A DNA stretch of 64,000 nucleotides, taken from an uncultured Lachnospiraceae bacterium (GTDB lineage Bacteria > Bacillota > Clostridia > Lachnospirales > Lachnospiraceae). Shown here piece after piece: positions 44,858-64,000 of the stretch. The stretch covers positions 105,126 through 169,125 of the forward strand of contig CACYMQ010000005.1 of the NCBI GenBank assembly GCA_902775555.1, written 5' to 3'. Made by a program: the position numbers and the translations under genes. The stretch's first letter is position 1, and each line of letters opens with the position of its first letter. Below the pieces are notes generated by a model. The model saw nothing but the letters and a program-made list of their open reading frames with translations. It searched no databases and was not told the DNA's origin.

Positions 44858-44864
44858 TGGCACT

Positions 44865-45845: not shown

Positions 45846-45854
45846 GTTGGCTAA

Positions 45855-48738: not shown

Positions 48739-49710
48739 ATGAGAGTATTAATTGTCGGATACGGATCCATGGGAAGACGGAGGATTCGGCAAATGAAACT
48801 ATTGTCACCGGAAAGTACTTATATTTGTGTGGATAATAATCCTGATAGGATAAAGCAGATATCGGAGGATGGTCTGTATGGATGTGATTCTTTGCAATCA
48901 GCTCTTGGTCTGAAACCTGATGTGGCATTTGTATGTACTTCACCAGGACATCATGCTGAGATAATTCTTACACTAATTGAAGCAGGCATCCACGTTTTCA
49001 CTGAATTAAATCTGGTTTCCGATCGATATGAAGAAATAATAGAACGAGCAAAAGAAAAGAATACAAAGGTGTTTATGTCAAGTACGATGCTTTATGATAA
49101 GCAGATCGTATCAGTGTTTAATACAGTTGGAAGGACACCAAAAAACCTATCCTATTTCTACCATGTAGGTCAATACCTTCCGGATTGGCATCCTTGGGAG
49201 AGTTATAAGGATTTCTTTATCGGTAGAAGGGAAACAAACGGTTGCAGAGAGATACTGGCGATTCAACTTCCGTGGCTCGTAAAATTGTTTGGCAAGGTGG
49301 TGAATGTTTCGGTTGTAAGAAAAAAGAATACAAATTTGGAGATAGACTTTGATGATACGTATTTTATCACACTGGAGCATGATCGGGAGAATACTGGTGT
49401 ATTTGTATGTGATGTGGTTTCTCGAAAAGCGGTAAATTACTTGGAAATATTAGGTGAGAAAACACACATTATCTGGGAAGGAACACCGGATTCTTTGTTT
49501 TCCTTTGATGATCAGGATAAATGCATGAGGCGATTGCCTTCGTATGAAGATACTAAACAGGTGGAGGGATACTCGGATATAATAATTGAGGATCAATACC
49601 TTGACGAAACAAAAGCATTTCTGGAAATGATATACGAGAATAAGACGCCCATGTATTCACTGGAAGATGACCGCGAAATTCTTGAATTGATAGATACTAT
49701 AGAACACTAA
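48739..49710 (+). CDS. Gfo/Idh/MocA family oxidoreductase
   Basis: A 323-residue NAD(P)-dependent oxidoreductase. The Rossmann motif is VLIVGYGSMGRRRI, followed by VAFVCTSPGHHAEIILTLIEAGIHVFTELNL, where the family usually has EKP-type residues and this protein has ELN. Paired Gfo/Idh genes are common in nonulosonate loci (PtmF-like position), possibly preparing an amino-sugar precursor. The reaction is unknown. Confidence 0.8.
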   Translation: MRVLIVGYGSMGRRRIRQMKLLSPESTYICVDNNPDRIKQISEDGLYGCDSLQSALGLKPDVAFVCTSPGHHAEIILTLIEAGIHVFTELNLVSDRYEEIIERAKEKNTKVFMSSTMLYDKQIVSVFNTVGRTPKNLSYFYHVGQYLPDWHPWESYKDFFIGRRETNGCREILAIQLPWLVKLFGKVVNVSVVRKKNTNLEIDFDDTYFITLEHDRENTGVFVCDVVSRKAVNYLEILGEKTHIIWEGTPDSLFSFDDQDKCMRRLPSYEDTKQVEGYSDIIIEDQYLDETKAFLEMIYENKTPMYSLEDDREILELIDTIEH

Positions 49711-49726
49711 TAGAGGGATGAATTAT

Positions 49727-50644
49727 ATGAAAGCTTTGTTTGTTGGAGTGGGTTCTATTGGCAGAAGACATATACGCGATTTTTATGAGGAGTGTTTATC
49801 ACATCAGGTGATTCCGGAGATACATGTGCTTAGAAGGTGTATTGACAATCTTGGAGAGATCGAGGCATATATTACAGAGCAGATTACAGAACTTGAGGAT
49901 GCGGATTACGATGTTGTTTTTATTACAAATCCAACAAATTTACACTATGATGCATTGAAAAGATGTAAAAATAGGGCAAGATGGTATTTTATTGAGAAAC
50001 CAATATTTGAAAGCCTGGAAAAAAAAATAGAGGACTTAGGAATTGATGATTTCAATACGTATGTAGCTGCCCCGATGCGTCATACATTATTGTATGGGAA
50101 ACTAAAAGAGATAATCAAGTCAAGAAAAGTGTTTTCCGTTCGGGTAATATGTTCAAGTTATCTCCCGGAGTGGCGTAAGGGTGTGGATTATAGGGAGGTT
50201 TATTCAGCTAAAAAAGAAATGGGTGGAGGAGTTAATCTGGATTTAATTCATGAAATAGACTATGTGTATGATTTGTTTGGGCAACCAGAGAGAATACATA
50301 GTATTTCTGGAAAGTATTCGGATTTGGAAATATCAAGCAACGACCTCAGTACGTTTCTTTTAGGGTATAAACAATTGATTTGTGAGATCCATTTGGATTA
50401 CTTTGGGAGAGAGTGTGTACGTGCTTGCGAGGTATATACGTCAGAAGGAACATATATTGCTGATTTTATTAAAGAAACTATGAGATTTCCCGACAATTCG
50501 GTTGTAGATTGTCATGTTATGCAAAATGAAGAATTTGTGAATGAGATGAAGTATTTTTATGATTTCATTTCGGGTAAGCATGCATCGATTAATCCGCCAA
50601 GTCGAGCGTTAAAAACTTTGGAGATAGCTTTAGAAGGGGATTAA
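49727..50644 (+). CDS. Gfo/Idh/MocA family oxidoreductase (second)
   Basis: A protein of about 305 residues with MKALFVGVGSIGRRHIRDFY, VVFITNPTNLHYDAL and WYFIEKPIFE (conserved EKP), plus GGGVNLDLIHEIDYVYDLFG with the catalytic His region. The start at 49727 has AGAGGG 9 bases upstream; ATG at 49718 would sit on the ribosome site itself. It stands between the first oxidoreductase and legF, with 2 bases to legF, so one operon is likely. Confidence 0.82.
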   Translation: MKALFVGVGSIGRRHIRDFYEECLSHQVIPEIHVLRRCIDNLGEIEAYITEQITELEDADYDVVFITNPTNLHYDALKRCKNRARWYFIEKPIFESLEKKIEDLGIDDFNTYVAAPMRHTLLYGKLKEIIKSRKVFSVRVICSSYLPEWRKGVDYREVYSAKKEMGGGVNLDLIHEIDYVYDLFGQPERIHSISGKYSDLEISSNDLSTFLLGYKQLICEIHLDYFGRECVRACEVYTSEGTYIADFIKETMRFPDNSVVDCHVMQNEEFVNEMKYFYDFISGKHASINPPSRALKTLEIALEGD

Positions 50645-50646
50645 CT

Positions 50647-51408
50647 ATGTCATATAAAGTATTAATAACAGTCTGTGGTAGAGCAGGTAGTTCGGGATTT
50701 AAAAATAAAAATTTAAAAACATTTTTGAACCATCCACTGGTTTATTACACGCTTTCTGCTGCTGAATTATTTCAAAGAAAAATGGGTAGTGATGTTAGTG
50801 TAGATGTATGCTTGAATACAGATAGTGAGGATTTAGCAGAAATAGTAGAAAAAAAATACCCTGAAGTCTATTTTATTAAACGGGATACGTCGTTAAGCGG
50901 AGGAAACGTACCTAAACCGGCGGTATGGAAAAACTGCATGGAAGTAATGCAAAGAATGAAAGACATTCAGTATGATTACATGATCGATTTAGATATTACA
51001 AGTCCGCTTAGACAGGAAGATGATGTGTACAGGGCGTTCCAAATGAAGTTAAAACGACCAGATGCTGATATGGTTGAGTCCATGTGCCCGGCAAGGCGTA
51101 ATCCATATTTTAACATGATGAAAGAAAACGGCGAGTTTGTTTCCACGGTGATTGAAAAAGGTTATGTTGCAAGGCAGCAAGCACCGAAGGTATACGATGA
51201 GAATGCATCAATTTACGTATTGAGAGGGGATTATTTTAATGAACATGGAGCTGAAATGGATGCGTTGAAAATTGTTCCGTACATTATGCGTGATACGGCG
51301 GTCCTGGATATAGATAGCGAGGAAGACTTTCTGATGATGAGTGTAATTGGGCGCTATTTATTTGAGAATGAAGAATCCTATTCAATGGTGAGAGATAATA
51401 TCAGATGA
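50647..51408 (+). CDS. legF: Acylneuraminate cytidylyltransferase (LegF/NeuA family)
   Basis: A 253-residue CMP-nonulosonate synthetase. The N-terminal CTP loop VCGRAGSSGFKNKNLKTF, the central DLDITSPLRQEDDV and the late NASIYVLRGDYF are family motifs. It activates a nonulosonic acid with CTP. The neighbours LegI, LegB and LegC/PtmE point to legionaminic acid rather than plain sialic acid, but the sequence alone does not fix the substrate. It is the only intact member here; a second one is truncated at 63062. Confidence 0.85.
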   Translation: MSYKVLITVCGRAGSSGFKNKNLKTFLNHPLVYYTLSAAELFQRKMGSDVSVDVCLNTDSEDLAEIVEKKYPEVYFIKRDTSLSGGNVPKPAVWKNCMEVMQRMKDIQYDYMIDLDITSPLRQEDDVYRAFQMKLKRPDADMVESMCPARRNPYFNMMKENGEFVSTVIEKGYVARQQAPKVYDENASIYVLRGDYFNEHGAEMDALKIVPYIMRDTAVLDIDSEEDFLMMSVIGRYLFENEESYSMVRDNIR

Positions 51409-51440
51409 TGTTGTTTAATACTTTATATGGAGGATGATCT

Positions 51441-52454
51441 GTGTCAGTTCGTGATAAAAAAAGATGTTTGGTTATTGCAGAAGCTGGAGTAAACCATAAT
51501 GGTAGTATAGACCTTGCGTTACGTCTATGTGATTCGGCAAAAAAAGCAAAGGCTGATATAATCAAGTTTCAAACTTGGAATACGGAGTTGCTACTTACAA
51601 AAAACGTGGGCCAAGCGGAATATCAGGCTTCAAATACAGGAGTTACTGAATCACAGTATGAAATGTTAAAGCGGTTGGAACTCTCTTATGATGATTTTCG
51701 GATGATAAAACAATACTGTGATAAGATTGGATTAACGTTTGCTTCGACTGCTGATGAGCCAAAAAGCTTGGATTTTTTGATAGAACTGGGAATTCCGTTT
51801 ATAAAGGTTGGGTCGAGTGACATAGGAAATGTATCATTTCTTCGTTATATTGGTTCCAAAGGACTCCCTGTCATTCTCAGTACGGGGATGAGTGCAATGG
51901 AAGATGTTGCGTTATCGGTTCAAGCTCTTCAAGAAGGGGGAGCGAAAGAAATTACGCTCCTACATTGCACTACATCATATCCCTGCCCTTATCGAGACGT
52001 GAATTTAAAAGCGATGATTTCCCTTAGGGAGTATTTTGGATTACCGGTTGGATACTCGGATCATACCATAGGGAATGAAATAGCTGTTGCTGCCGTAGCA
52101 CTCGGTGCGTCCATTATTGAGAAGCATTTTACACTAGATTGCGGAATGGATGGGCCAGATCATGCTGCAAGCACGGAACCACCGGTTTTTCATAAAATGG
52201 TAAAGGAAATCAGAAATGTCGAAAATTGTCTTGGGGATGGGGTAAAAAAACCGACTGAAATGGAGATAGACATTTCAAAAGTTGTTATGAAAAGAATCGT
52301 GGCGAATTCCTCGATACATATCGGGGATACTTTTACTGTTGATAACATATGTGTAAAGAGACATGATCAGGGCGTGTTAGCAAAAGAATGGGATGCTGTA
52401 ATCGGAAAAAAATCCACTAGGAACTATTCTCCGGATGAAGGGATTGAAATGTGA
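51441..52454 (+). CDS. legI: Nonulosonate synthase (NeuB/LegI family), copy 1
   Basis: Condenses phosphoenolpyruvate with a 6-carbon amino-sugar to form the 9-carbon acid. The 337-residue protein begins VIAEAGVNHNGSIDLAL and has KFQTW, KVGSSDIGN, LSTGM, LLHCTTSYPCPY, GYSDHT and EKHFTLD, then a C-terminal SAF (antifreeze-like) domain from about residue 285. It starts with GTG behind GGAGGATGATCT. A paralogue at 60883 is clearly related along its whole length. Confidence 0.9.
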   Translation: MSVRDKKRCLVIAEAGVNHNGSIDLALRLCDSAKKAKADIIKFQTWNTELLLTKNVGQAEYQASNTGVTESQYEMLKRLELSYDDFRMIKQYCDKIGLTFASTADEPKSLDFLIELGIPFIKVGSSDIGNVSFLRYIGSKGLPVILSTGMSAMEDVALSVQALQEGGAKEITLLHCTTSYPCPYRDVNLKAMISLREYFGLPVGYSDHTIGNEIAVAAVALGASIIEKHFTLDCGMDGPDHAASTEPPVFHKMVKEIRNVENCLGDGVKKPTEMEIDISKVVMKRIVANSSIHIGDTFTVDNICVKRHDQGVLAKEWDAVIGKKSTRNYSPDEGIEM

Positions 52455-53677
52455 TGAAACAAGATAACAAACTGTTGGACAGAATGCTTCCGTTGATTGG
52501 GAGAAAGGAGCCTCTTTTTACTCGGGATATGGAAAAGTGGGAGGAGGATATTTATTCTATGATCCATGACTCCAGATTTCTTGTAATAGGAGGGGCTGGA
52601 ACTATAGGTTCTTCTATCTGTAGAGAGATCTATGCGAGAGATCCGAAGTTACTACATGTAGTTGATATAAGTGAGAATAATCTGGTCGAGCTTGTTCGGG
52701 ATATTCGATCTTCCATCGGTTATGGGACTGGTGAGTTTGCTACTTATGCTTTGGATTGTGGGTCTTATATTTTTGATTGCTTCCTTAAAGAAACAATTGA
52801 CAGGATTGGTGGATATGATTATGTGTTTAACACTTCAGCCTTGAAACATGTTCGTTCGGAAAAAGACCCATATACGCTGATGAGGATGATTGATACGAAT
52901 ATTTTCTATACAGAGAAAACTATGAAACAGGCGGCGGACTTTGGGGCGAAGAAGTATTTCTGTGTATCTACTGACAAGGCGGCAAATCCTGTTAATATGA
53001 TGGGAGCCAGTAAACGGATTATGGAGTATTTTTTAAACCGCATGAGCTTGAGTTTGCCTGTTTCTACAGCGAGATTTGCAAATGTTGCTTTCTCTGATGG
53101 TTCTTTATTATATGGTTTTAATCGACGCCTTGAAAAAGGACAACCGTTAGCGGCGCCAAGTGATGTGCGTCGGTATTTTGTGACGCCAAAGGAGGCGGGG
53201 CTTCTTTGTATTTTCTCTTGTATGACGGGCGGGAATAGAGATATATATTTTCCCAAAATGGATGAGAGAATTAATATGGTCACATTTAGCAGCATTGCTG
53301 AGAAGTATTTGGAAAGTCTCGGATATGAACCGGTAAGATGCAACACGGAACAGGAAGCTCGGGAAAGGGTGGATGAGTTAAAAGACCAAATGAAGTATCC
53401 GGTATACTTTTTCACCAGTGATACCACAGGCGAGAAGGATTTTGAAGAGTTTTATACGGATAATGAGACGTTGGATTTGGAGCGCTTTGACAGCATCGGA
53501 ATAGTGAAGAAGGAAGTTGACTATGAAGAGGAAAAACTAAATCGTTTTACTGTGAAAATTGATGAAATAAAAAAAAGAGGAAGATGGACAAGAAGAGATT
53601 TAATTGAACTATTTAATTGGATGATTCCGGAATTTCATCACAAAGAAACAGGACGGTTCCTGGATGGGAGAATGTGA
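52454..53677 (+). CDS. legB: Nucleotide-sugar 4,6-dehydratase (LegB/CapD family)
   Basis: A protein of about 407 residues of the polysaccharide-biosynthesis SDR group. FLVIGGAGTIGSSICREIY is the NAD site and STDKAANPVNMMGASKR the active site, with Met in place of the usual Tyr as in several dehydratases of this group. Together with LegC and PtmE it fits the GDP-GlcNAc 4,6-dehydratase step of legionaminic synthesis. The ATG at 52454 overlaps the legI stop (TGATG). It is followed by a 290-base decayed gap and a truncated legC. Confidence 0.85.
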   Translation: MKQDNKLLDRMLPLIGRKEPLFTRDMEKWEEDIYSMIHDSRFLVIGGAGTIGSSICREIYARDPKLLHVVDISENNLVELVRDIRSSIGYGTGEFATYALDCGSYIFDCFLKETIDRIGGYDYVFNTSALKHVRSEKDPYTLMRMIDTNIFYTEKTMKQAADFGAKKYFCVSTDKAANPVNMMGASKRIMEYFLNRMSLSLPVSTARFANVAFSDGSLLYGFNRRLEKGQPLAAPSDVRRYFVTPKEAGLLCIFSCMTGGNRDIYFPKMDERINMVTFSSIAEKYLESLGYEPVRCNTEQEARERVDELKDQMKYPVYFFTSDTTGEKDFEEFYTDNETLDLERFDSIGIVKKEVDYEEEKLNRFTVKIDEIKKRGRWTRRDLIELFNWMIPEFHHKETGRFLDGRM

Positions 53678-53967
53678 TAGTAATCTAAGATAAAACAGAG
53701 ATAATCATATGGAGTACTCATTAGAAGGCTTAGAATAACGTGCGAAAGTGGAGAATAAAAAGAAGAACAAAGGCAAACTTTTTTATGAACCGAGGTTGAA
53801 TACGTAGGGGCTTAGAGCAAGTTTCCAGGTTTCGGATGTCGTGAAAATCGATTATCCTGATGAGTTTTTTATACATTGATTGAATCAAGCAGCTGGATTA
53901 TGGATAGTTCCTTTGTATACTGATTGCGACAACTGTCAAATAATTAAAAGAATGAGAGAAAGTACAG
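53678..53967 (+). other. AT-rich gap with possible promoter
   Basis: No gene seen in 290 bases. It holds a small inverted repeat TTGATT-G-AATCAA at 53876-53888 and a possible promoter, TGGATT (53894-53899) with a 16-base spacer to TATACT (53916-53921), upstream of the truncated legC. The rest looks like decayed or spacer DNA. Confidence 0.4.
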
Positions 53968-54151
53968 ATGATACATTTAGCCATACCTAATCTGGAAGGA
54001 AAAGAAAGAGATTATTTGAATCGATGTATAGATACAACATTTGTTTCTTCCGTAGGTGAATATGTTGATCAGTTTGAGGAACTTGTGGCTGAGGCAACAG
54101 GAAGCCGGTATGCAGTTGCTACCTCTTCGGGAACAACAGGAATTCATGCGG
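53968..54151 (+). pseudogene. legC 5' fragment (aminotransferase remnant)
   Basis: The first 61 codons closely match the start of the intact legC at 55280 (NLEGKERDYLNRCIDTTFVSSVGEYV, quoted as the region of residues 8-33), ending TSSGTTGIHA. The match stops abruptly at about 54150, where sequence of a flippase gene begins. The open frame runs on to 54225 with unrelated residues. The PLP lysine and all later motifs are absent, so it is not functional. Confidence 0.88.
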
Positions 54152-54601
54152 GTGATGCCGCCGGTTGCCGCAGGCTGTTTTCTTCAATTCATTTATTCTT
54201 TGTACGTAAATGTGGAGCAGTTTGAGAAGAAGACGGTCGGTATGGCGATAGCCAGTTGTGTGGCGGTTCTGATCAATTATGCACTGAATGCAGTTTTCAT
54301 TCGGTTGTATGGATATGTGGCTGCTGCGTATACTACTTACGTATGTTATTTTTTGCTCATGATATTCCATATGCTTTTGGTGGCCAGGATCGGAAAAGCA
54401 GAGGTCTACCCTAACGGAAAAGTTCTTGTGATTGCAATCATTTTTTCAGCAATGATCTTTTCCGTAACATTCCTGTTGGAGATGACAGTTTTGCGATGGA
54501 TTATCATTATGGCATATGGAGTGGGACTCCTGATTCTTGCGATAAAATACAGAGAACCTATAAAGAATTTGCTCAAGCGAAAGGAAACTGAATCTATATG
54601 A
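54152..54601 (+). pseudogene. Flippase 3' fragment (Wzx remnant)
   Basis: About 149 codons of the C-terminal part of an MOP/Wzx flippase, beginning VMPPVAAGCFLQFIYSLYVNVE and holding about 4 transmembrane segments. The 5' two-thirds are missing. It is not a piece of the flippase at 47159, since the sequence differs. An ATG at 54056 opens the frame upstream, but those codons are out-of-frame legC DNA. Its stop overlaps the next gene as ATGA, so the original order flippase-methyltransferase is preserved. Confidence 0.82.
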
Positions 54602-55259
54602 AACAGACGATAGATCCTATCTGGGAGAAAATACATAGCACACAGGCCTGGGGCGGTATCCTTCCGAACAGCTGATACGTTTTGTTGCCAGAAACTATTA
54701 CGGGAAAGAAAGATCGAAAGTGCGAATCCTGGATTTTGGTTGTGGGCAGGGGGCATCCACTTGGTTCCTTGCAAGAGAAGGGTTTAATACCTACGCCTTT
54801 GACGGATCTGAGAGTGCTATACGAAAGGCGAAGGAACGTCTAGAGTCTGAAGGGCTGTATGCTTCATTTCAGGTTGCTGACGCAGCAGCTGTCGAATATC
54901 CGGATGAATTCTTTGATGCGGTTATCGACAATGTGTGTATTTATGCAAATCGCATAGATGATATTTTCAGGATGTATCAGATTGTTTATCGTATGTTGAA
55001 AAAGGGAGGAAAGCTTTTCTCTTCATGCTTTGGAGATGAACTCTATGGATATGATACGGGCGTTGAAATTGAAAAAGGCACATTTACCGATATCCAGGTC
55101 GGACCATTGAAAGATCGGGGAGTTACGCATATTTTTCGTCAGAAAGAACTAGAGGAACTGTTATCTGCAACAGGATTCAAGGATGTTCAGGTGGATTGGA
55201 ATCGGTATACGGATCATGGGGAACCGGTGCATCTGTTGATTGCTATTGCTGAAAAATGA
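54598..55259 (+). pseudogene. Class I SAM methyltransferase with frameshift
   Basis: The N-terminal frame MKQTIDPIWEKIHSTQAWGG runs into a stop at about 54675. The adjacent frame supplies the expected RYPSEQLIRFVARNYYGKE and continues to 55259 through ILDFGCGQGASTWFLA (SAM motif I). Restoring one base in the run TGGGGCGG near 54650 would give W-G-R-Y-P and a 220-residue protein. A GTG at 54720 could start a shortened form lacking 40 residues. It is either a pseudogene or a sequencing error in a G run. The target is unknown; N- or O-methylation of the nonulosonate is conceivable. Confidence 0.78.
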
Positions 55260-55279
55260 CCGACTGAAAGGTAGGAAAA

Positions 55280-56425
55280 ATGATAAACCTGGCAATTCCG
55301 AATCTGGAGGGAAAGGAAAGAGAATATCTGAACAAATGCATAGATACCACATTCGTTTCGTCCGTGGGTGAATATGTGAACCGTTTTGAGGATCAGGTCG
55401 CTAAGGTTACCGGAAGCAGGTATGCTGTTGCTACATCATCGGGGACTACAGGGCTTCATGCAGCGCTTACGGCTGTCGGTGTCAAGAGAGATGATCTGGT
55501 TATTATTCCGTCGTTTACTTTTATAGCAACGGCTAATGCGATAGCGCACTGTGGTGCAATGCCATGGTTGATGGATATCAGGGAAGAAGACTGGTGTTTG
55601 GACCCGGAAATCGTTGAAGCCGAGATTCGTTATACCTGTGTGTTGAAGGATGGAGCGCTTATTCACAGGGAGATGGGAAAAAGAGTGGCTGCATTGATGC
55701 CGGTTTACACTATTGGAAATCTTCCGGATATGAAAAGATTCCGGAGAATCGCAGATATGTATGGTATTCCACTCGTAGCGGATGCTGCATGTGCTATCGG
55801 TGCGAAGTGGCAGGGAGAGGACTTTGGAAGTTTTGCGGATCTGTCGGTGCTTTCATTTAACGGGAATAAGACAGTTACCTGCGGCGGCGGCGGCGCTGTG
55901 ATCGGAAATGACGAGAATCTACTGAAACTTGTAAAGCATCTGACAACCACCGCACGTGTCAGCAAAGAATATGACTTTGACATGGTGGGGTTCAATTATC
56001 GGATGACGAATCTGCAGGCAGCAGTCGGTTGTGCTCAATTGGAGCGATTGGACACTTTTCTTTCGAGAAAACGTTTTGTCCGGTCATATTATGAATCAAC
56101 CTTCAGTGATTTCGGAGTTAGTTCGTTTCCGGCAACGGATATGGCCTCATGCTGGTTCTCCGGGGTTATTCTTCCGGAAGGGAAAGGCGAGGAGGATGTG
56201 CGCGATATCTGTAAGAAACTTGCTGATGCAGGTGTAGAGGCTAGAGCTTTCTGGAAACCTGTACATCTCCAAAAACCATATCAAAGTGCGCGTATAAGTG
56301 CTATGAGGAACACAGAGGCTGTTTGGAACAGGATCATCACGCTTCCCTGCAGTACTGGAATAACAGAGGAAGAGCTGAAGATTGTTTGTGATATGGTAAG
56401 AATCATTTTGAAAGAACATCTATAG
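55280..56425 (+). CDS. legC: DegT/DnrJ/EryC1 aminotransferase (LegC family)
   Basis: A 381-residue PLP sugar aminotransferase, normal for the family. The PLP lysine is Lys197 in SFNGNKTVTCGGGG, with VADAACAIGAKW and GFNYRMTNLQAAVGCAQLERLD as supporting motifs. It would aminate the 4-keto-sugar made by LegB to a 4-amino-4,6-dideoxy sugar. A good site AAAGGTAGG precedes the ATG. A 5' fragment of a second copy lies at 53968. ptmE follows after 18 bases. Confidence 0.92.
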   Translation: MINLAIPNLEGKEREYLNKCIDTTFVSSVGEYVNRFEDQVAKVTGSRYAVATSSGTTGLHAALTAVGVKRDDLVIIPSFTFIATANAIAHCGAMPWLMDIREEDWCLDPEIVEAEIRYTCVLKDGALIHREMGKRVAALMPVYTIGNLPDMKRFRRIADMYGIPLVADAACAIGAKWQGEDFGSFADLSVLSFNGNKTVTCGGGGAVIGNDENLLKLVKHLTTTARVSKEYDFDMVGFNYRMTNLQAAVGCAQLERLDTFLSRKRFVRSYYESTFSDFGVSSFPATDMASCWFSGVILPEGKGEEDVRDICKKLADAGVEARAFWKPVHLQKPYQSARISAMRNTEAVWNRIITLPCSTGITEEELKIVCDMVRIILKEHL

Positions 56426-56443
56426 TGATGGGGGACGTAGTAT

Positions 56444-57496
56444 ATGGATCAGGTTGAAATTGGTAAGTATATAGGTGATCAGGGGATAACACTTTCTGAG
56501 GCCATGCGGGCTATTGATGAGAACGGAAACGGAGTTCTCTTCTTGGTGGACGTTGAGAAGAGACTTCGATTCAGTATATCGGACGGAGATGTCCGACGAT
56601 TTCTCCTGAAGGGGGGCAGAATGGAGGCTCCTGCCAAAGAGGCTGCGAATGCTAAACCTAAGTATGCTTATTCTTATGAGGAAGCAATATCGTTGTATCA
56701 TAAGAAAAACTGGGTGATCATCCCGGTCCTTGACATGAACGGCTGCATTACCGACCTTTATACAGGGGATGGAGTAAAGGAAAAAGACAGGGCAGTACTT
56801 CGGATTCCGGTCGTAATCAATGCAGGAGGAAAGGGAACACGCCTGGATCCCTTTACCAAGGTGCTTCCGAAACCTCTGATTCCGGTGGGAGAACTCCCGA
56901 TCATTGAGCATATCATGAAAGAATTCTCATCCTATCAGTGCAATGATTTTCACATGATCGTGAATTATAAAAAAGAGCTTATAAAAGCCTATTTTGAGTC
57001 GGGAAATGAGAAGCCATATCAGCTCACCTGGTATGATGAGGAAAAACCTCTGGGGACCGGAGGCGGATTATGCATGTTGAAAGGGAAGATGGACAGCACA
57101 TTTTTCTTCTCAAATTGCGATAATCTTCTGACAGCCAACTACGAGAGGATCCTGGCTTTCCATAAAGAAAATCAAAATGTGATTACAATGGTCTGCGCAT
57201 ACAAGAATCTTTCGATTCCATATGGTGTCGTTGAGATCGGAGTGAACGGGAGTATTGAGAAGATGAAGGAGAAACCTGTTTTTTCGTTTTTGACGAACAC
57301 GGGTATCTATGTTGTGGAACCTGAGGTCCTTGAAGATATTGAGGATCAGGTGCCGATCGGTTTCCCGGATGTGATTGAAAAGGAAAGAATGAAAGGCAGG
57401 AGGGTTGCTGTTTTTCCGGTCGGTGAAAGCGATTGGATGGATATGGGGCAAATGTCCGAATTGGAGAAGATGAGAATCAGATTGTATGGGGAATAG
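56444..57496 (+). CDS. ptmE: CBS-domain sugar-1-phosphate nucleotidyltransferase (PtmE-like)
   Basis: A 350-residue protein with an N-terminal CBS pair (about 1-120: LSEAMRAIDENGNGVLFLVD, WVIIPVLDMNGCITDLY) fused to a nucleotidyltransferase domain starting VVINAGGKGTRLDPFTKVLPKPLIPVG. This is the layout of PtmE, the glucosamine-1-P guanylyltransferase of the legionaminic pathway. WYDEEKPLGTGGGL and WMDMGQ are conserved. It lies between legC and a decayed FemAB-like gene. A 3' fragment of a second copy is at 58442. Confidence 0.87.
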   Translation: MDQVEIGKYIGDQGITLSEAMRAIDENGNGVLFLVDVEKRLRFSISDGDVRRFLLKGGRMEAPAKEAANAKPKYAYSYEEAISLYHKKNWVIIPVLDMNGCITDLYTGDGVKEKDRAVLRIPVVINAGGKGTRLDPFTKVLPKPLIPVGELPIIEHIMKEFSSYQCNDFHMIVNYKKELIKAYFESGNEKPYQLTWYDEEKPLGTGGGLCMLKGKMDSTFFFSNCDNLLTANYERILAFHKENQNVITMVCAYKNLSIPYGVVEIGVNGSIEKMKEKPVFSFLTNTGIYVVEPEVLEDIEDQVPIGFPDVIEKERMKGRRVAVFPVGESDWMDMGQMSELEKMRIRLYGE

Positions 57497-57544
57497 AAGA
57501 ACAGATCTTAGAAGTTGAGTGAATAAACGTGGAGGAAAAGTCAC

Positions 57545-58447
57545 ATTTTAAGGGTTTATACAAAAAAGAATGAGGAAGAGTGGAATCCCCTGGTAAAAAG
57601 CTTTTCCAACTGGGATATCTATTATCTTTATGAATACGTCAGAACGTTTATGCTTCACGGGGATGGTGAGCCGTTGCTTATCGAGTATCAGGATGAGGAG
57701 TCGCATTTCGGTTATGTTGCCATGAAACGTGATATTTCGGAGGATCCTCGCTTTTTCATGCTTTCTCCGGGGGCCTGCTTCGATCTGGACGCCCTATGGA
57801 TATGGAGGACCGCTTTCCGATGGAGATGTTCCGGAGGAGTCTCAGAAGCGATTTGCTTCAGAACTGCAGGAGTATTTGTGTGGGAGAGGGTATTGTTGAG
57901 CAGTTTGTCTGTTTTCATCCGTTACTTGGTAATCATGAAACGGTATCTCTGGCTTTTGAACTGCGGTATATGCATGATACTATTTATATCGATGCCTCTT
58001 CCGCGGACATGATCATGGCGAATATGGACAGCAAGAATCGGAATATGGTTCGGAAGGCTGCAAAAAACAGCGTCACAATAGAAAGAAAGCCTATAGACGC
58101 CTATGAAGAGTTTCTTCGAATGTATGAGGAAACCATGATGAAGGATCAGGCGTCTCAGTATTATTTTTTTGAAAAGGACTATTTCGAGGAACAGAGTTCC
58201 CTCAGGGATCATGCCTGTATCTTTTATGCCATGAGGGAAGAAATACCTATTGCAGGTGCTATATTCTATTTCACTGATCGGTTTTTGCATTATCATCTTG
58301 CAGGAACTCATACAGAATACAGAAAATATGCGCCGAGCAATCTGATGCTGTATGAGGAGGCCTGCTGGGCAAGCGAGAAGGGGATTGGCAAGTTCCATCT
58401 TGGAGGTGGAATGGCACCGGATGACAGCTTATTTGGTTTAAAAAAAC
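57545..58447 (+). pseudogene. FemAB/GNAT-like acyltransferase, decayed
   Basis: GGAGG at 57531-57535 is followed by ATT, not ATG, at 57545 and then LRVYTKKNEEEWN, suggesting a mutated start. The frame shifts near 57788 (the family's TPYGYGGP appears only after adding or dropping a base) and again near 57891, before EQFVCFHPLLGNHE. The C-terminal part (57796-58440) has HYHLAGTHTEYRKYAPSNLMLYE, typical of FemAB/GNAT-like proteins. The end is cut and joined to a ptmE fragment. It could have acylated the sugar once; it is unlikely to be active. Confidence 0.78.
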
Positions 58448-58735
58448 ATGAATATTCCTTATGGTGTTGTTGAAATGGGGATTAATGGTTCGATACAGGA
58501 AATGAAAGAATAACCGTTAGTGTCTTTTTTGACTAATACAGGTATATATATTGTTGAACCAGAGGTGATTGATGATATTGAAGATGGAGTATCAATGGGC
58601 TTTCCTGATATAATTGAAATGGAGCGCAAAAAAGGAAAAAAGGTTGCAGTGTTCCCTGTTAGTGAGAATGATTGGATGGATATGGGACAGCTTCCTGAAC
58701 TTGAAAAGATGAGGATAAGATTATATGGTGAATGA
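58442..58735 (+). pseudogene. ptmE 3' fragment
   Basis: The last 95 or so codons of a second ptmE: NIPYGVVEMGINGSIQEMKE, then an in-frame TAA at 58511-58513 where the intact copy has lysine, then SFLTNTGIYIVEPEVIDDIE and WMDMGQLPELEKMRIRLYGE. The nucleotide sequence is more AT-rich than the intact ptmE, so it comes from a different source and not from a recent local duplication. Its end overlaps the following decarboxylase gene. Confidence 0.88.
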
Positions 58736-59906
58736 TAGCATAAACCGAGAATTACAAACACCATGTTATGTTTTTGATGAAGGATTATTTATAAAGAATA
58801 TACAGGATTTTTATTCTGTTCTACATAAATACTTCGTTAATTCTATAATTGGGTATTCTTTTAAAACTAATTCTATTCCGAGAGTGATAAGGTTGGCAAA
58901 AGATAATGGGTGTTTTGCGGAAGTTGTATCTGATGATGAGTATAAGCTTGCAATAGAAATAGGTTTCAATCCAAAGGCAATAATATTTAATGGACCAGTT
59001 AAAGAAAAGGAAACATTCATTTATGCAATAAAAAACGGAAGCTTAATAAATATAGACTCTCAAAGAGAGATGAGTTGGTTGATCGAGAGCGGAATAAAAG
59101 CCGATATTGGAGTTAGGATAAACTTTGATTTAGAAAGACACATGCCAGGTCATACATCTACGGGGGAGCAAGGTGGCCGTTTCGGTTTCTGCTATGAAAA
59201 TGGCGAACTACATAATGTAATTTGTAAACTTAAGGCATACGGAATTAATATTTCAAGATTACATATGCATGTGAGTAATGCGTCGAAGGCGGTTGAGGTA
59301 TATCAATGCCTTGCGGAAAATGCTTGTAAGATTATTGAGGAGGAAAAACTTGGGGTTAACTGTATAGATTTTGGTGGGGGCTATTTTGGTGGTGGAGATA
59401 ACGGAAAACAATATGAGAAGTATGCTTCGGCTATCTATGAAACACTCAAGATATATGGAATGGAGAAGTGCTCTGTCATTGTAGAACCAGGAGCATCAGT
59501 TGTTGCCACCTGTTTTTGTTATTTGACAAGTGTTGTTGATGTAAAGAAAACCAACTATGGAAGTTTTGTAATTACGGATGGAACAAGACTTCATATCGAT
59601 CCTTTTTTTGTCAGGAGTAAATATAACTATTCTATTCTAAAGTGTAAAAGTTTAGCATCGGAAAAAAGTGTTCAGTGTATCTGTGGTTATACTTGCATGG
59701 AAAAAGATAGAATAATGAATACGAGTGATACGGATTTACAGGTGGGTGATAGAATTTGCTATGATATAGTAGGTAGTTACACGATGTGTTTTAACCCACT
59801 TTTTATAACATATCTTCCTAGGGTATATAGTTTGGTAGATAATAGTTATGAACTAATTCGCGAAAAATGGGGTGTGACTGAGTACATTCAGAAATGTAGG
59901 TGGTAA
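58725..59906 (+). CDS. PLP-dependent decarboxylase, Orn/DAP/Arg type III family
   Basis: A 393-residue fold-type III PLP protein related to diaminopimelate and carboxynorspermidine decarboxylases. The PLP lysine is Lys47 in GYSFKTNS. HMHVSN, GGGYFGGG, EPGASVV and the C-terminal CMEKD (about 324-328, the Cys-x-x-x-Asp of the partner active site) are present, so it looks catalytically competent. The substrate is unknown. It overlaps the ptmE fragment and is tightly followed by an ATP-grasp gene, suggesting that its amine product is ligated to something in the nonulosonate pathway. Confidence 0.8.
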   Translation: MVNDSINRELQTPCYVFDEGLFIKNIQDFYSVLHKYFVNSIIGYSFKTNSIPRVIRLAKDNGCFAEVVSDDEYKLAIEIGFNPKAIIFNGPVKEKETFIYAIKNGSLINIDSQREMSWLIESGIKADIGVRINFDLERHMPGHTSTGEQGGRFGFCYENGELHNVICKLKAYGINISRLHMHVSNASKAVEVYQCLAENACKIIEEEKLGVNCIDFGGGYFGGGDNGKQYEKYASAIYETLKIYGMEKCSVIVEPGASVVATCFCYLTSVVDVKKTNYGSFVITDGTRLHIDPFFVRSKYNYSILKCKSLASEKSVQCICGYTCMEKDRIMNTSDTDLQVGDRICYDIVGSYTMCFNPLFITYLPRVYSLVDNSYELIREKWGVTEYIQKCRW

Positions 59907-59908
59907 AT

Positions 59909-60886
59909 TTGAAAAATATACTAATATTAAATGCGGGAACACGAGATACGCTGATTCAAGACTTTCTAAAAACAGTGAATGATCAGTGCTCAATTATCGT
60001 TACAGATAATTATGAGTTGGCTCCGACAGTATATGAGACGCAAAAGCAATATGTTACCAAAAGATGGGATGAGGAAGGATATTGGGACGATATTATAGAT
60101 ATTTGTAAAACCGAAAATGTTGGATTGGTTTTAACACTTGTTGATCCTGAATTGGAACTCTTGGCTGAAAGAAAAAAAATATTCGAAGATATGGGGATTC
60201 TTGTTAATGTTGCCAATGTTGAAACGGTTCGGGATACGTTTGATAAATATAAAACAATATCTTATGTTATGCAACATGGATATAATTATATCAAATCCTA
60301 TATTGATTATGATTCTGCGAAAGAGGCAATTGATAATAAAGAGATAGTATTCCCGTTGATTACAAAACCAAGAAAAGGCAGTGGAAGCGCTGGCATTGAA
60401 CTGGTTAATAATACTATTAGACTTAAGCAAATCTGTGATGAGAATGAAGATGTTCTTATCCAAGAGTTTGTCAAAGGCCAAGAGATAGGCGTTGATGTAT
60501 TTGTTGATTTAATCACTGGAGAAGTTGTTTCGATTTTTGCCAAAAAAAAGCTCAAAATGAGAGCTGGAGAAACAGATAAAAGTGTTTCTTTTAAGGATAA
60601 TTCTTTGTTTTCGCTTATTAGTTCTTTTGCTCGCGAATTTGGATTGAAGGGTGTAAATGATATCGATGTTTTCGAACGAGATGGTAAGTACTATATTTCC
60701 GAAGTGAATCCGAGATTTGGTGGTGGATATGTACATGCGTATGCTGCTGGAGTAGATTTCCCCAAGATGCTATTAAATAACATGAATGGAATCACAAATA
60801 AGAATAGTATTGGAGAATATAGGGAAGATTTGTATATGATGAAATACTTTGCAATAAAGGTGATAGGAAAGGAAGAACTCAAGTGA
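59909..60886 (+). CDS. ATP-grasp ligase, CarB-like
   Basis: A protein of about 325 residues: MKNILILNAGTRDTLIQDFL (pre-ATP-grasp domain), then FPLITKPRKGSGSAGIELV (ATP loop), VLIQEFVKGQEIGVDVF and YYISEVNPRFGGGYVHA (metal site). ATP-grasp enzymes of this type join a carboxylate to an amine through an acyl-phosphate. The TTG at 59909 follows AGGTGG; GTG at 59900 is the alternative. It overlaps the legI2 start (GTGA). The neighbouring decarboxylase suggests the amine donor; this is inference. Confidence 0.82.
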   Translation: MKNILILNAGTRDTLIQDFLKTVNDQCSIIVTDNYELAPTVYETQKQYVTKRWDEEGYWDDIIDICKTENVGLVLTLVDPELELLAERKKIFEDMGILVNVANVETVRDTFDKYKTISYVMQHGYNYIKSYIDYDSAKEAIDNKEIVFPLITKPRKGSGSAGIELVNNTIRLKQICDENEDVLIQEFVKGQEIGVDVFVDLITGEVVSIFAKKKLKMRAGETDKSVSFKDNSLFSLISSFAREFGLKGVNDIDVFERDGKYYISEVNPRFGGGYVHAYAAGVDFPKMLLNNMNGITNKNSIGEYREDLYMMKYFAIKVIGKEELK

Positions 60887-61887
60887 TTTTTGAAAAGACA
60901 CTTATAATAGCTGAAGCAGGTGTTAATCATAATGGAGATATAGAGATTGCAAAAAGTTTGTGCATGGCGGCAAAAAAAAGTGGCGCCGATGTTATAAAAT
61001 TCCAAACTTGGATTACAGATAGGATCATTACGAAAGAAGTAAAACAAGCAGAGTACCAATCAGATAATACAGGTAGCAATCAATCACAGTATGAAATGCT
61101 TAAGTCACTAGAATTAAGTTTTGATAATTTTCGTGAAATTAAGGAGTATTGTGATAGTATCGGTATTTGTTTTGCTTCTACAGCTGATGAAGAAGATAGT
61201 TTGGATTTCTTAATTGAGTTAGGAATCCCTTTTATTAAACTTGGATCTGGTGAACTTAGTAACATCCCATTTTTGAGATATTGTGGAACAAAAGGTCTTC
61301 CTATAATTCTAAGTACGGGCATGGGAAATCTTTCTGATGTCGAAGTAGCAATAAATGCTATAAGACAAGGCGGTTCAAATGATATTACACTTTTACATTG
61401 TACCACCAGTTATCCCTGTCCATTTGATATGGTTAATCTTAAGGCTATGTTGACTTTAAAAAATGCATTTGGTCTTTCTGTGGGCTATTCGGATCATACT
61501 CAGGGGATAGAAGTGCCAATAGCAGCAGTATCATTAGGCGCAAAGGTGATTGAAAAGCACTTTACTTTGAATAAGAATATGTCTGGCCCCGACCATATTG
61601 CGAGTACAGAACCAGAAGAGTTCAAAAAAATGGTTCAATCTATAAGAAACATAGAGATTTCTTTAGGAACAGGTTTTAAAACTCCAACAGAAAAAGAGAG
61701 TGAAATATCGAAAGTAGTGTTAAAACATATTGTAGCGAAACGCTTCATACCTGAAGGAAAGGTGATTTGTTCAGATGATATTTGTGTAAAACGTAGTTCG
61801 TCTGGATTACCAGCTAGTGCATGGGATATTATTGTAGGTACAGTGGCAAGAAAGAGCTACACTATTGATGAAGGAATAACTATATGA
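60883..61887 (+). CDS. legI: Nonulosonate synthase (NeuB/LegI family), copy 2
   Basis: A 334-residue paralogue of the synthase at 51441, with the same motifs: IIAEAGVNHNGDIEIA, KFQTW, KLGSGELSN, LSTGMG, LLHCTTSYPCPF, GYSDHT and EKHFTLN, and a C-terminal SAF domain. It starts with GTG overlapping the ATP-grasp stop and overlaps legG by 4 bases. Its codon use is more AT-rich than copy 1. The two copies may use different 6-carbon precursors or simply be redundant. Confidence 0.9.
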   Translation: MIFEKTLIIAEAGVNHNGDIEIAKSLCMAAKKSGADVIKFQTWITDRIITKEVKQAEYQSDNTGSNQSQYEMLKSLELSFDNFREIKEYCDSIGICFASTADEEDSLDFLIELGIPFIKLGSGELSNIPFLRYCGTKGLPIILSTGMGNLSDVEVAINAIRQGGSNDITLLHCTTSYPCPFDMVNLKAMLTLKNAFGLSVGYSDHTQGIEVPIAAVSLGAKVIEKHFTLNKNMSGPDHIASTEPEEFKKMVQSIRNIEISLGTGFKTPTEKESEISKVVLKHIVAKRFIPEGKVICSDDICVKRSSSGLPASAWDIIVGTVARKSYTIDEGITI

Positions 61888-63065
61888 TGAAGAAAGTTTG
61901 TGTTGTGACTGCGACAAGAGCTGAATATGGATTGCTTCGACCGTTGTTGTTTAGATTAGATCAAAGTAACGAAGTTGATCTTCAACTTGTTGTTACTGGA
62001 ACTCATTTATGTTCTATATTTGGTAATACTCAGAAAGAAATAGAACAGGATGGATTCAGGGATTATTTTAAGGTACTACTTCCTCTTGATGATGATAGTA
62101 AAGAGGCTATGGCTATTTCTACAGGAATATCTACTCAAAAATTCGCGAAGCTTTTTTCGGAGTTGTTACCCGATATAGTTGTGATATTAGGTGATAGATT
62201 TGAAATGCTTGGAGTTGCAACTGCTGCACATTTAATGGGGATTCCAATTGCGCACATTTGTGGCGGGGATGTAACAGAAGGGGCTGTTGATGATGCAATA
62301 CGTCATTGTATTACAAAACTAAGTTTCCTTCATTTTCCAGGATGTGAAGAATCCGCTAATCGTATAATACAAATGGGGGAAAGTCCAGATAGAGTATTTA
62401 ATGTTGGAGAACCAGGAATAGAGAATTGCGTTAATATGAAACTGCTATTGGTTGAAGATTTGGCAAATGAGATTGGCTTTAAAGGGGTATTAACGGATTA
62501 TTGTGTAGTCACCTTTCATCCGGTTACTATGGAAAATAATACAGCTGAGCGGCAAGTTAGAGAATTAATAATGGCGATGGATCAGTTTCCTAATATGTCA
62601 TATATTATTACAAAAGCAAATGCAGATGCCGGGGGAAGGATAATTAATGAGATTTGGGATGAAGAGGCAAAAAATAGGAAAAATTGGTATGTAACATTTT
62701 CTCTTGGTATTCAAAAGTATTTAAGTGCCGTAAAGTCATCAAAATTGGTGATTGGTAATTCTTCGAGTGGTTTGGTAGAGGTTCCAGCATTAAAAGTACC
62801 TACAATTAACATTGGGAACAGACAAAAGGGACGATTGATGGCTAAGAGTGTAATTTGTTGTGAGCCAGAATTAAAGGATATTGTTAAAGCAATGAATAAG
62901 GGTTTATCTCAAGCATTCAAGGAGAGTATTGAGGGTATTGTTCTTCCATATGGAGATGGAAGAACATCTGAAAAAATATTGCGAGAAATAATGCATTATC
63001 TTAATAGTGAGAATAGAATGGCAGCAAAAATATTTTATAATATCGTTTTTCAAAAGGAAAAATAA
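61884..63065 (+). CDS. legG: Hydrolysing UDP/GDP-sugar 2-epimerase (NeuC/LegG family)
   Basis: A 393-residue member of the WecB/NeuC fold. VTATRAEYGLLRPLL, VTGTHLCSIFGNTQKEIEQDGF, ILGDRFEMLGVATAAHLMGIPIAHICGGDVTEG (quoted in parts; residues about 95-130) and VIGNSSSGLVEVPALKVPTINIG are diagnostic. It releases the nucleotide and inverts C2, giving the 6-carbon substrate of LegI. This is the only copy in the window. A truncated legF follows directly. Confidence 0.9.
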   Translation: MMKKVCVVTATRAEYGLLRPLLFRLDQSNEVDLQLVVTGTHLCSIFGNTQKEIEQDGFRDYFKVLLPLDDDSKEAMAISTGISTQKFAKLFSELLPDIVVILGDRFEMLGVATAAHLMGIPIAHICGGDVTEGAVDDAIRHCITKLSFLHFPGCEESANRIIQMGESPDRVFNVGEPGIENCVNMKLLLVEDLANEIGFKGVLTDYCVVTFHPVTMENNTAERQVRELIMAMDQFPNMSYIITKANADAGGRIINEIWDEEAKNRKNWYVTFSLGIQKYLSAVKSSKLVIGNSSSGLVEVPALKVPTINIGNRQKGRLMAKSVICCEPELKDIVKAMNKGLSQAFKESIEGIVLPYGDGRTSEKILREIMHYLNSENRMAAKIFYNIVFQKEK

Positions 63066-63151
63066 AGAGAATACTAACTATAATACCCGCCAGGAGTGGT
63101 TCGAAAGGCTTAATCAATAAAAATATCTGGGATGAAGCAGTAAAGTTTTGA
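63062..63151 (+). pseudogene. legF/neuA 5' fragment
   Basis: The frame from ATA at 63062 reads KRILTIIPARSGSKGLINKN then IWDEAVKF and a stop. IPARSGSKG..NKN is the CTP-binding loop of acylneuraminate cytidylyltransferases. Only about 25 codons remain, and the start codon appears changed (ATA). The break falls at about 63150, where minus-strand sequence of a membrane protein begins. The original order legI-legG-legF is thus visible. Confidence 0.82.
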
Positions 63152-63155
63152 CATG

Positions 63156-63878
63156 CTATATGGACGATATTTTTGGGGACGTGTGTCTCTCGTGAAAAAG
63201 CCGAACACCGCATCCCAGAATAAACAGACCAAAGAAAAGGTAATTCAGACTGTTGATTCCCGCCGGAAGCAGACAGACCAGATATACCAGGAACTCAATC
63301 AGGTTATATCGATTCAGTTTTTCCTCCTCCTGCAGGAATGTCAGGAAGGGAATGATAAAGAAAATCAGATTGTAACCGCCTGCGCCGCCTCCGATCAGCA
63401 GCGAGAGATAGGTGATGAGAAACAGAATCTGAGAATTCTTAAGTGGAATAACAGGTTTCCCGTTTCGGCGAATCATGAGTGCGATCAGTAAGAAAAGCCC
63501 CAGGATCAAAAAGAGAACGAGATACCAGGGAATGCCGGACCCTGAGCCTTCTGCGGCAGAAGATGTTCCTTCGGAACCGCCGATGCCGAATACAAACTTC
63601 AGCCAGGGAAGGATACTGGAGGGACCCTCAAAAACAAAGGTAGGAAGTACTGTGAAAAGAACCGCATAGAGGACACATCTCCCTGCAGCAGAAAACTTCA
63701 GGTCTTTCAGAAGCAGAAGACCGAAGATGCATGGATACAGTTTAAGACCGAAGGTTGCGGCCAGTGCAATAAGCGCCAGCTCTGACTTCAGTTTGTTTTC
63801 ATCGTTATAATGCTTCACGAAATAGAAGGTAAGGACAAAAGCTAGCAGGATCACATTTCCACGCTCGATCGCTGACAT
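63156..63878 (-). CDS. GT87/DUF2029-like membrane protein, N-terminally truncated
   Basis: A 240-residue hydrophobic C-terminal part of a mannosyltransferase-type (GT87, DUF2029) membrane enzyme, with about 6 transmembrane segments and the motifs MSAIERGNVILLAF and FGLKLYPCIFGLLLLKD. Upstream on the minus strand the same frame still reads RLTFSAGT, then meets a stop near 63910, so the N-terminal half is missing. It is probably a broken gene. Its moderate GC matches the core genome, not the AT-rich locus, and it runs opposite to the leg genes. Confidence 0.6.
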   Translation of the reverse strand: MSAIERGNVILLAFVLTFYFVKHYNDENKLKSELALIALAATFGLKLYPCIFGLLLLKDLKFSAAGRCVLYAVLFTVLPTFVFEGPSSILPWLKFVFGIGGSEGTSSAAEGSGSGIPWYLVLFLILGLFLLIALMIRRNGKPVIPLKNSQILFLITYLSLLIGGGAGGYNLIFFIIPFLTFLQEEEKLNRYNLIEFLVYLVCLLPAGINSLNYLFFGLFILGCGVRLFHERHTSPKISSI

Positions 63879-63952
63879 GGTGCCTGCCGAGAAGGTAAGA
63901 CGTAAACGTCAAATCACTCGCCTTCCAGTATAACCCGATTTTTGATAGACTC

Positions 63953-63983
63953 TAAAAAACTCGTAAAACTAGCTAGTTTTTTA
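63953..63983. repeat. AT-rich palindrome at right edge
   Basis: AAAACTAGCTAGTTTT (63965-63980) is a perfect 16-bp palindrome, flanked by TAAAAAACT (near 63954-63962) and AGTTTTTTA (63975-63983), which also pair. It could be a terminator with T run, an operator or the edge of a mobile unit. No gene is seen from 63916 to 64000, and AAAGGAGG at the very end could be a ribosome site of a gene outside the window. Confidence 0.5.
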
Positions 63984-64000
63984 AAGCCGTCAAAGGAGGT

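What the first reader, a model, noticed from the sequence alone, without database searches (positions are those of the whole stretch)
48739..63151. Mosaic legionaminic-acid locus assembled from pieces of at least two operons
The sequence shows intact legF, legI, legB, legC, ptmE, a second legI and legG, plus fragments of legC, a flippase, ptmE and legF located exactly at joints (about 54150, 58445, 63150). Each fragment is the duplicate of an intact gene or the stump of a lost one. Taken together, one complete copy of nearly every step survives. This suggests that successive recombinations swapped operon segments under selection to keep the pathway complete, with more AT-rich DNA to the right of 58445.
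Basis: partly seen in the sequence, partly recalled or inferred. Interest (0 to 1): 0.8.

Follow-up and report, generated by a model that had tools for sequence, protein, structure and literature searches.

The report
Patchwork surface-sugar operon with swapped module
A bacterium carries a surface-sugar operon that looks stitched together from pieces of several related operons; the working genes still cover nearly the whole pathway, and the broken leftovers suggest that one decorating step was exchanged for another, a known style of evolution caught at a readable moment.

Summary
The named genes and fragments are present, and a gene-blind G+C segmentation cuts at 54076, 58429 and 63175, near the three proposed joints. 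Segments: A (AT-rich: gfo1-gfo2-legF-legI-legB-legC stump), B (GC-richer: flippase stump, methyltransferase, legC, ptmE, FemAB), C (AT-rich: ptmE stump, LysA-like, ATP-grasp, legI2, legG, legF stump), D (GT87 stump). Parts of each order occur in relatives. legC' and ptmE' differ from the intact copies mostly at third codon positions, so they diverged as working genes. The rest of legC', ptmE' and legF'' was not found elsewhere in the assembly. New here: in B only legC and ptmE are intact; flippase, methyltransferase, AT_X and FemAB are broken or gone. In relatives FemAB, usually with AT_X, fills the slot after ptmE, where other operons have legH; in C that slot holds a LysA-like/ATP-grasp pair. 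I read this as exchange of the N-acyl-decorating module. The legG tree does not separate C cleanly from B's relatives, and the number of events and the raw reads are untested. Mosaic glycan loci with remnants are known; interest is moderate.

The parts
48739..49710 (+). gfo1, Gfo/Idh/MocA oxidoreductase (segment A)
   Evidence: PF01408; 58% to G003, 56% to G440, both in gfo1-gfo2-legF sets
49718..50644 (+). gfo2, Gfo/Idh/MocA oxidoreductase (A)
   Evidence: PF01408; 60% to G003, 55% to G440
50647..51408 (+). legF, CMP-sugar synthetase of the gfo-linked type (A), intact
   Evidence: PF02348; 59% to G440, 55% to G003
51441..52454 (+). legI1, nonulosonate synthase (A), intact
   Evidence: TIGR03569 above cut-off; tree with G003/G035
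52451..53677 (+). legB, sugar 4,6-dehydratase (A), intact, overlaps legI1 by 4 bp
   Evidence: PF02719; best matches 43-46%
53823..53870 (+). possible decayed methyltransferase scrap between legB and legC'
   Evidence: 48 bp at 66.7% to the methyltransferase of B, E=0.002; weak
53968..54147 (+). legC' 5' fragment (A), 60 codons
   Evidence: 78.7% DNA identity to intact legC; 40 differences in 180 bp, 28 at codon position 3
54147..54150 (.). Joint J1
   Evidence: legC similarity stops, flippase frame begins; G+C cut at 54076
54149..54601 (+). flippase C-terminal fragment (B)
   Evidence: 30-48% to other flippases
54597..55259 (+). SAM methyltransferase (B), frame changes near 54655
   Evidence: PF13649; 50-54% over 170-180 residues to methyltransferases of L035, L102, L103, L104, L106, L112, L116
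55280..56425 (+). legC aminotransferase (B), intact
   Evidence: PF01041; TIGR04181 403.9 bits against cut-off 420; 57-64% in seven other genomes and 38% in an eighth
56444..57496 (+). ptmE nucleotidyltransferase (B), intact
   Evidence: PF00483; best matches 65-69%
57516..57531 (.). site of AT_X loss (gene of 354-356 aa present in G003 and G035)
   Evidence: DNA matches to G035 flank a 1.02 kb gap; alignment
57531..58452 (+). FemAB-type acyltransferase (B), two frameshifts (near 57787 and 57875), C-terminus lost
   Evidence: 86% DNA to G035
58446..58455 (.). Joint J2
   Evidence: FemAB similarity ends, ptmE' begins; G+C cut at 58429
58448..58735 (+). ptmE' 3' fragment (C) with in-frame stops
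   Evidence: 80-85% aa over 71 residues to the six best ptmE
58725..59906 (+). LysA-like PLP decarboxylase (C)
   Evidence: PF02784; nearest solved structure N-citrylornithine decarboxylase
59900..60886 (+). ATP-grasp ligase, carbamoyl-phosphate-synthase-like (C)
   Evidence: NF009406 above cut-off; 2pn1
60883..61887 (+). legI2, second nonulosonate synthase (C), intact
   Evidence: TIGR03569 above cut-off; tree with G070
61884..63065 (+). legG, hydrolysing 2-epimerase (C), intact
   Evidence: PF02350; best matches 58-61%; tree with G035/G003
63060..63127 (+). legF'' 5' fragment (C), about 21-24 codons
   Evidence: 76-78% over 21-23 aa to legF of L034/L038; 73% over 22 residues
63127..63155 (.). 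Joint J3 (about 28 bp unassigned)
   Evidence: G+C cut at 63175
63156..63898 (-). GT87 glycosyltransferase, C-terminal stump (D)
   Evidence: alignment with three full-length GT87 proteins
63902..64000 (.). 99 bp shared with contig C82; contig end

Best explanation
The locus is a recombinant nonulosonic (legionaminic-type) acid operon. Blocks of homologous but diverged operons (A, B, C) were joined, in canonical order, by joints without long homology that left short overlaps (legC', ptmE') and stumps. The working set is legF, legI1, legB (A), legC and ptmE (B), and LysA-like, ATP-grasp, legI2 and legG (C). B's decorating module (methyltransferase, AT_X, FemAB) is dead, and the LysA-like/ATP-grasp pair of C occupies the same slot after ptmE. 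The net effect is most likely a swap of the enzymes that acylate an amino group of the sugar, so that the cell makes a differently N-substituted nonulosonic acid. Shown: fragments, joints, composition, gene orders, dead genes. Inferred: the acylation role of both modules, the direction of the swap, expression and selection.
For: Composition cuts at the joints. Parts of the blocks match real gene orders: legB-legC-ptmE-AT_X-FemAB-legG-legF-legI (L096, L097); legC-ptmE-AT_X-FemAB-legI-legG-legF (L138); ptmE-FemAB-legI-legG-legF without AT_X (L102, L103, L106, L109) and with AT_X (L107), with legI2 at 68-70% and legG at 59-61%; AT_X-FemAB-legI-legG with legI2 at 74% (L099); gfo2-legF-gfo1-legB-legC (L180, L183); legI-legB-legC-ptmE (G070). 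B is 85-86% DNA identical to G035 in the ptmE 3' end and FemAB. legC' and ptmE' diverged as coding DNA: 28 of 40 and 42 of 60 differences at codon position 3. AT_X lies directly upstream of FemAB in 53 of 77 loci; of the 32 of 77 with legI within six ORFs, 26 also have AT_X and 4 a legH-like gene there (the best 80 of 360 FemAB relatives, 3 dropped for lack of a FemAB ORF). No clear legH homologue in the genome: 3 weak hits, best E 3.8e-5. An ATP-grasp gene (33-37%) lies beside legF- and legI-like genes in L103 and L106. Precedent: in C. difficile type B flagellin loci a FemAB-like gene sits beside an ATP-grasp gene, and the ATP-grasp mutant's glycan is not extended past the trisaccharide to the peptidylamido-sugar (PMC5207246, passages).
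Against: No reads and no conspecific strain examined. legG of C groups with G035/G003, the relatives of A's legI1 and of B's FemAB, so C is not cleanly from another source. No other locus fetched shows the LysA-like/ATP-grasp pair in a legI operon: the pair is together in 4 of 112 loci, one of them this window, and neighbours were fetched for only 7 of the 27 other genomes with the ATP-grasp match. Four of the five closest-looking C operons (L102, L103, L106, L109) have FemAB without AT_X in the slot. The A-C relationship is unresolved. NCBIfam does not confirm a legionaminic rather than another nonulosonic product. The survivor pattern in B has a chance level of 1 in 15. In C. difficile the FemAB-like gene could not be knocked out.
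Confidence: 0.62

Rival explanations
1. One event: block B (4.3 kb) was inserted into a single resident operon A-C, replacing the stretch from inside legC' to near the end of ptmE'. The module swap would then predate B's arrival.
For: legB-legC' (A) and ptmE'-lysA (C) are the two sides expected of one operon; A and C are both AT-rich; legC' GC3 0.217 is nearer C genes (0.24-0.28) than B's legC (0.45); J1 and J2 then need one double event.
Against: A-C would hold two legI and two legF; legI1 and legI2 fall in different supported groups; D has B-like composition on the far side of C.
Confidence: 0.3
2. Assembly or binning chimera: blocks from different strains joined by the assembler.
For: Draft of 96 contigs; the window ends in 99 bp shared exactly with another contig, which looks like an assembly-graph branch.
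Against: Within 44000-64000 no long exact repeat at the joints (repeats elsewhere in the genome could not be checked). The rest of ptmE', legC' and legF'' was not found elsewhere in an assembly 99.49% complete (in one search only 4 of 12 first-look candidates were scored). The lost FemAB C-terminus and flippase N-terminus were not searched for in a way that would find them. Genes inside B also carry ordinary decay.
Confidence: 0.08
3. Internal duplication within one operon followed by decay.
For: legC, ptmE, legI and legF each occur twice, whole or in part.
Against: legC' and ptmE' differ from the intact copies by 22% and 28%, 70% of it at third codon positions; legI1 and legI2 are 61% identical; blocks differ in composition.
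Confidence: 0.03
4. The fragments are silent cassettes kept for gene conversion (antigenic variation of legC and ptmE).
For: Partial copies of intact genes lie in direct orientation 1.24-1.31 kb away.
Against: 71-79% identity is low for efficient exchange; one partial copy each; ptmE' has stops in frame. No recombinase was searched for.
Confidence: 0.03

Closest known systems
Salmonella galactose-initiated O-antigen gene clusters (PMC3715488, passages read)
   Same: Clusters formed by recombination between related clusters (D2 from D1 and E), gene remnants, loss of an old gene after gain of a substitute
Clostridium botulinum flagellar glycosylation island (PMC2674064, passages read)
   Same: Divergent, exchanged island with legionaminic acid gene homologues; a derivative carrying an N-methyl-glutamyl group (Leg5Ac7NMeGlu) is reported
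   Different: Enzymes for that group were not assigned in the passages read; no block mosaic described there
C. difficile type B flagellin modification locus (PMC5207246, passages read)
   Same: FemAB-like gene beside an ATP-grasp gene in a locus for an aminoacyl-type sugar decoration
   Different: Not described as a nonulosonic acid operon in the passages read; no LysA-like partner named there
Butirosin BtrJ/BtrK (pairing recalled; BtrK structures 2j66 and 7ru7 matched)
   Same: ATP-grasp ligase paired with a LysA-like decarboxylase (recalled)
   Different: Acts on an acyl carrier protein; ranks N-citrylornithine and several diaminopimelate decarboxylases closer than BtrK

Membership tests
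GDP-linked legionaminic acid biosynthesis locus (features recalled) | LegB, LegC, LegG, LegI, LegF homologues present and full length | tested here: met
   Pfam families met; NCBIfam: LegC 403.9 bits against cut-off 420, LegI above the N-acetylneuraminate synthase cut-off, LegB and LegF below the cut-offs of their best models
GDP-linked legionaminic acid biosynthesis locus (features recalled) | PtmE-type nucleotidyltransferase | tested here: met
   PF00483 plus an N-terminal KpsF-like match; 65-69% to ptmE of operons with legI
GDP-linked legionaminic acid biosynthesis locus (features recalled) | LegH N-acetyltransferase | tested here: not met
   one legH query gave only 3 weak partial hits in the genome, best E 3.8e-5; LysA-like/ATP-grasp in its slot
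GDP-linked legionaminic acid biosynthesis locus (features recalled) | product is a legionaminic acid | not testable with these tools
   needs chemistry
Recombinant (mosaic) glycan gene cluster with remnants | blocks of different composition with remnants at the junctions | tested here: met
Recombinant (mosaic) glycan gene cluster with remnants | blocks have different nearest relatives | tested here: inconclusive
   legI1 with G003/G035, legI2 with G070, but legG of C with G035/G003
Recombinant (mosaic) glycan gene cluster with remnants | parent arrangements found intact elsewhere | tested here: inconclusive
   orders for parts of A, B and C; no relative shows a whole block, and none shows C with LysA-like/ATP-grasp
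Recombinant (mosaic) glycan gene cluster with remnants | joints real in the cell's DNA | not testable with these tools
   no reads held

The most novel reading that the evidence does not exclude
The nonulosonic acid made here carries a new kind of N-substituent installed by an ATP-grasp ligase and trimmed by a LysA-like decarboxylase (for example a glutamyl group turned into an aminobutyryl group). The locus records exchange of this chemistry for FemAB/AT_X/methyltransferase chemistry in a fixed 'acyl slot' after ptmE.
Probability: 0.2. Interest if true: 0.5.

Novelty: new member of a known kind. Interest (0 to 1): 0.35.

Why it matters
Surface nonulosonic acids are seen by hosts and phages (general knowledge). 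A locus where an old and a new decorating module can both be read, one dead and one intact, shows how a bacterium may change this sugar's side group without losing the pathway. It also points to an 'acyl slot' after ptmE where legH, FemAB with or without AT_X, or LysA-like/ATP-grasp can sit, which gives testable assignments for genes of unassigned role.

Tried and rejected
The repeat GTAAACGTCAAATCA at the contig end was checked as a mediator of the other joints: in the window 3 matches at up to 3 mismatches against a mean of 1.68 expected, none at J1-J3, so rejected for those. Internal duplication was rejected on divergence pattern. 'AT-rich only to the right' was rejected. The large proteins near GT87 in G035, G016 and contig C70 were compared with the window's 1563-aa ORF: no match at E 1e-5. 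The methyltransferase scrap in A is weak. A G+C cut at 50881 inside legF is marginal (gain 16.8 against null maximum 16.4) and not used; the cut at 44741 is the island's left edge. One comparison inside (ptmE 3' end against G035) failed and is not used. A search for papers with BtrK and BtrJ found none. No tRNA gene was found in the window. No structure prediction was run.
Full report
What was checked. The window is G000:C5:105126-169125 and its right end is the end of that contig. The genome is a draft of 3,008,555 bases in 96 contigs, 99.49% complete.

Gene content. The four fragments are present: legC' is 78.7% identical in DNA to the intact legC over a 183-column alignment and ptmE' 73.5% to the intact ptmE over 238 columns, with two stops in frame; the flippase piece is a C-terminus 30-48% identical to other flippases; legF'' has best matches of 76-78% over 21-23 residues, others 57-78%. 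The leg names rest partly on context: NCBIfam puts both legI proteins above its N-acetylneuraminate synthase cut-off and leaves LegC, LegB and LegF below the cut-offs of their best models.

Joints. J1 is at about 54147, J2 at 58446-58452 and J3 at 63127-63155. A segmentation that used only G+C content cut at 44741, 50881, 54076, 58429 and 63175; for each accepted cut 0 of 60 block shuffles reached the gain, though 50881 is marginal. Segment G+C is 0.363 (44741-50880), 0.394 (50881-54075), 0.447 (54076-58428), 0.348 (58429-63174) and 0.466 (63175-64000). The middle block B and the right end D are therefore the GC-richer pieces.

In B the methyltransferase changes frame near 54655. Between ptmE and FemAB, relatives G035 and G003 have a further gene of 354-356 aa, here called AT_X, with weak DegT/PLP aminotransferase matches; it is gone in the window, where DNA similarity to G035 jumps across about 1 kb. 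FemAB has two frameshifts and has lost its C-terminus. Of six genes of B (flippase, methyltransferase, legC, ptmE, AT_X, FemAB) only legC and ptmE are intact, and they are the only intact copies of those two functions in the locus. If two of six survived at random, this pair would be drawn once in 15, so selection is suggested, not proven.

Where the blocks come from. An operon of the form legB-legC-ptmE-AT_X-FemAB followed by legI, legG and legF in varying order recurs in the named loci (L093, L096, L097, L100; L138 lacks legB in view). One search kept the best 80 of 360 FemAB relatives; 77 gave a FemAB open frame (L095, L116 and L149 did not). AT_X lies directly upstream in 53 of 77. In 32 of 77 a legI gene lies within six ORFs; of those 32, 26 have AT_X, 21 ptmE, 6 the methyltransferase, 4 a legH-like gene and 2 an ATP-grasp match within the same distance. 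Those two, L103 and L106, have the ATP-grasp gene (33-37%) beside a second set of legF- and legI-like genes. Segment A resembles gfo2-legF-gfo1-legB-legC (L180, L183), the gfo1-gfo2-legF sets of G003 and G440, and legI-legB-legC-ptmE of G070. Segment C resembles ptmE-FemAB-legI-legG-legF of L102, L103, L106 and L109, which lack AT_X there, and ptmE-AT_X-FemAB-legI-legG-legF of L107, with legI2 at 68-70% and legG at 59-61%, but with the LysA-like/ATP-grasp pair in the slot. In L099, legI2 is matched at 74%. In the legI tree of 16 rows legI1 groups with G003 and G035 (99/95) and legI2 with G070 (95/92); in the legG tree of 12 rows legG of C groups with G035 and G003 (100/98), which weakens a clean separation of C from the sources of A and B. 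D is the C-terminal part of a GT87 protein; full GT87 genes lie convergent to a nonulosonate operon in G035 and to an operon with a 29% legI-like gene in G016, so D may mark the old right border.

Why not artefact or duplication. legC' differs from the intact copy by 8, 4 and 28 bases at codon positions 1, 2, 3 in 60 codons, ptmE' by 11, 7, 42 in 72; FemAB against G035 has 30, 23, 76. I infer that the fragments diverged as working genes in separate operons and that FemAB died recently. The rest of ptmE', legC' and legF'' was not found elsewhere in the genome (in one search only 4 of 12 first-look candidates were scored); the lost ends of FemAB and of the flippase were not tested. The repeat search of 44000-64000 found no long exact repeat at the joints. 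Reads were not available, so a chimera is unlikely but not excluded.

How it probably works. LegB, LegC, LegG, LegI, LegF and PtmE homologues are present; LegH has no clear homologue, only three weak hits. The LysA-like protein matches N-citrylornithine and diaminopimelate decarboxylases best and BtrK more weakly; the ATP-grasp protein matches a carbamoyl-phosphate-synthase-like structure. In 392 genomes of the order the ATP-grasp query matched 28 at E 1e-50 or better, the best other at 49%; I fetched the surroundings of 7 of the 27 others. The pair is together in 4 of 112 loci longer than 6 kb, this window included (loci chosen by other queries, not a census); the other three (L078, L080, L083) carry legC-like genes, and L083 also a legB-like gene, with no legI listed. 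I infer that the pair attaches, and perhaps trims, an amino acid on the amino sugar, a job that AT_X, FemAB and the methyltransferase may do in related operons. In C. difficile a FemAB-like and an ATP-grasp gene lie together in a flagellin-decoration locus; [quoted passage not shown] C. botulinum makes an N-methyl-glutamyl legionaminic acid (PMC2674064, passages).

How new it is. Recombinant glycan clusters with gene remnants are known, for example in Salmonella (PMC3715488, passages). In the held library one paper has both 'legionaminic' and 'FemAB' (the C. difficile paper) and one has 'nonulosonic acid' and 'ATP-grasp' (a Shewanella flagellin paper, PMC3765264, passages); a wider search added none that I followed (12 of 131 listed). 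I file the locus as a new member of a known kind, with the acyl-slot exchange as its most useful lesson.

Noticed in passing
window 63902-64000: The 15-mer GTAAACGTCAAATCA occurs three times in the genome, each within 100 bp of a contig end (C5, C70, C82), and the last 99 bp of the window equal the start of contig C82 reversed. Among 60 other genus genomes only G002 has it, once. It may be a site-specific recombination core, an insertion-sequence end or another repeat that broke the assembly.
   Followed up: partly
L043:187-1377: A second, full-length GT87 gene lies near a contig end in the same genome, two genes from a large protein (1267 aa) homologous to large proteins near GT87 in G035 and G016.
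   Followed up: partly
window about 44741: G+C falls from 0.495 to 0.363 here, the apparent left edge of the AT-rich glycan island.
   Followed up: no
L044:14504-18243: Contig C45 holds another NeuB-like synthase (about 32% to the window's legI), a legF-like gene and a flippase near its end, perhaps a second nonulosonate locus.
   Followed up: no
L070:16015-16550: The methyltransferase next to FemAB in G070 is matched in two separate pieces, so loss of this gene may have happened more than once.
   Followed up: no
L183:6938: A 742-aa ORF matches both gfo1 (55%) and legB (42%), a likely fusion of the two.
   Followed up: no
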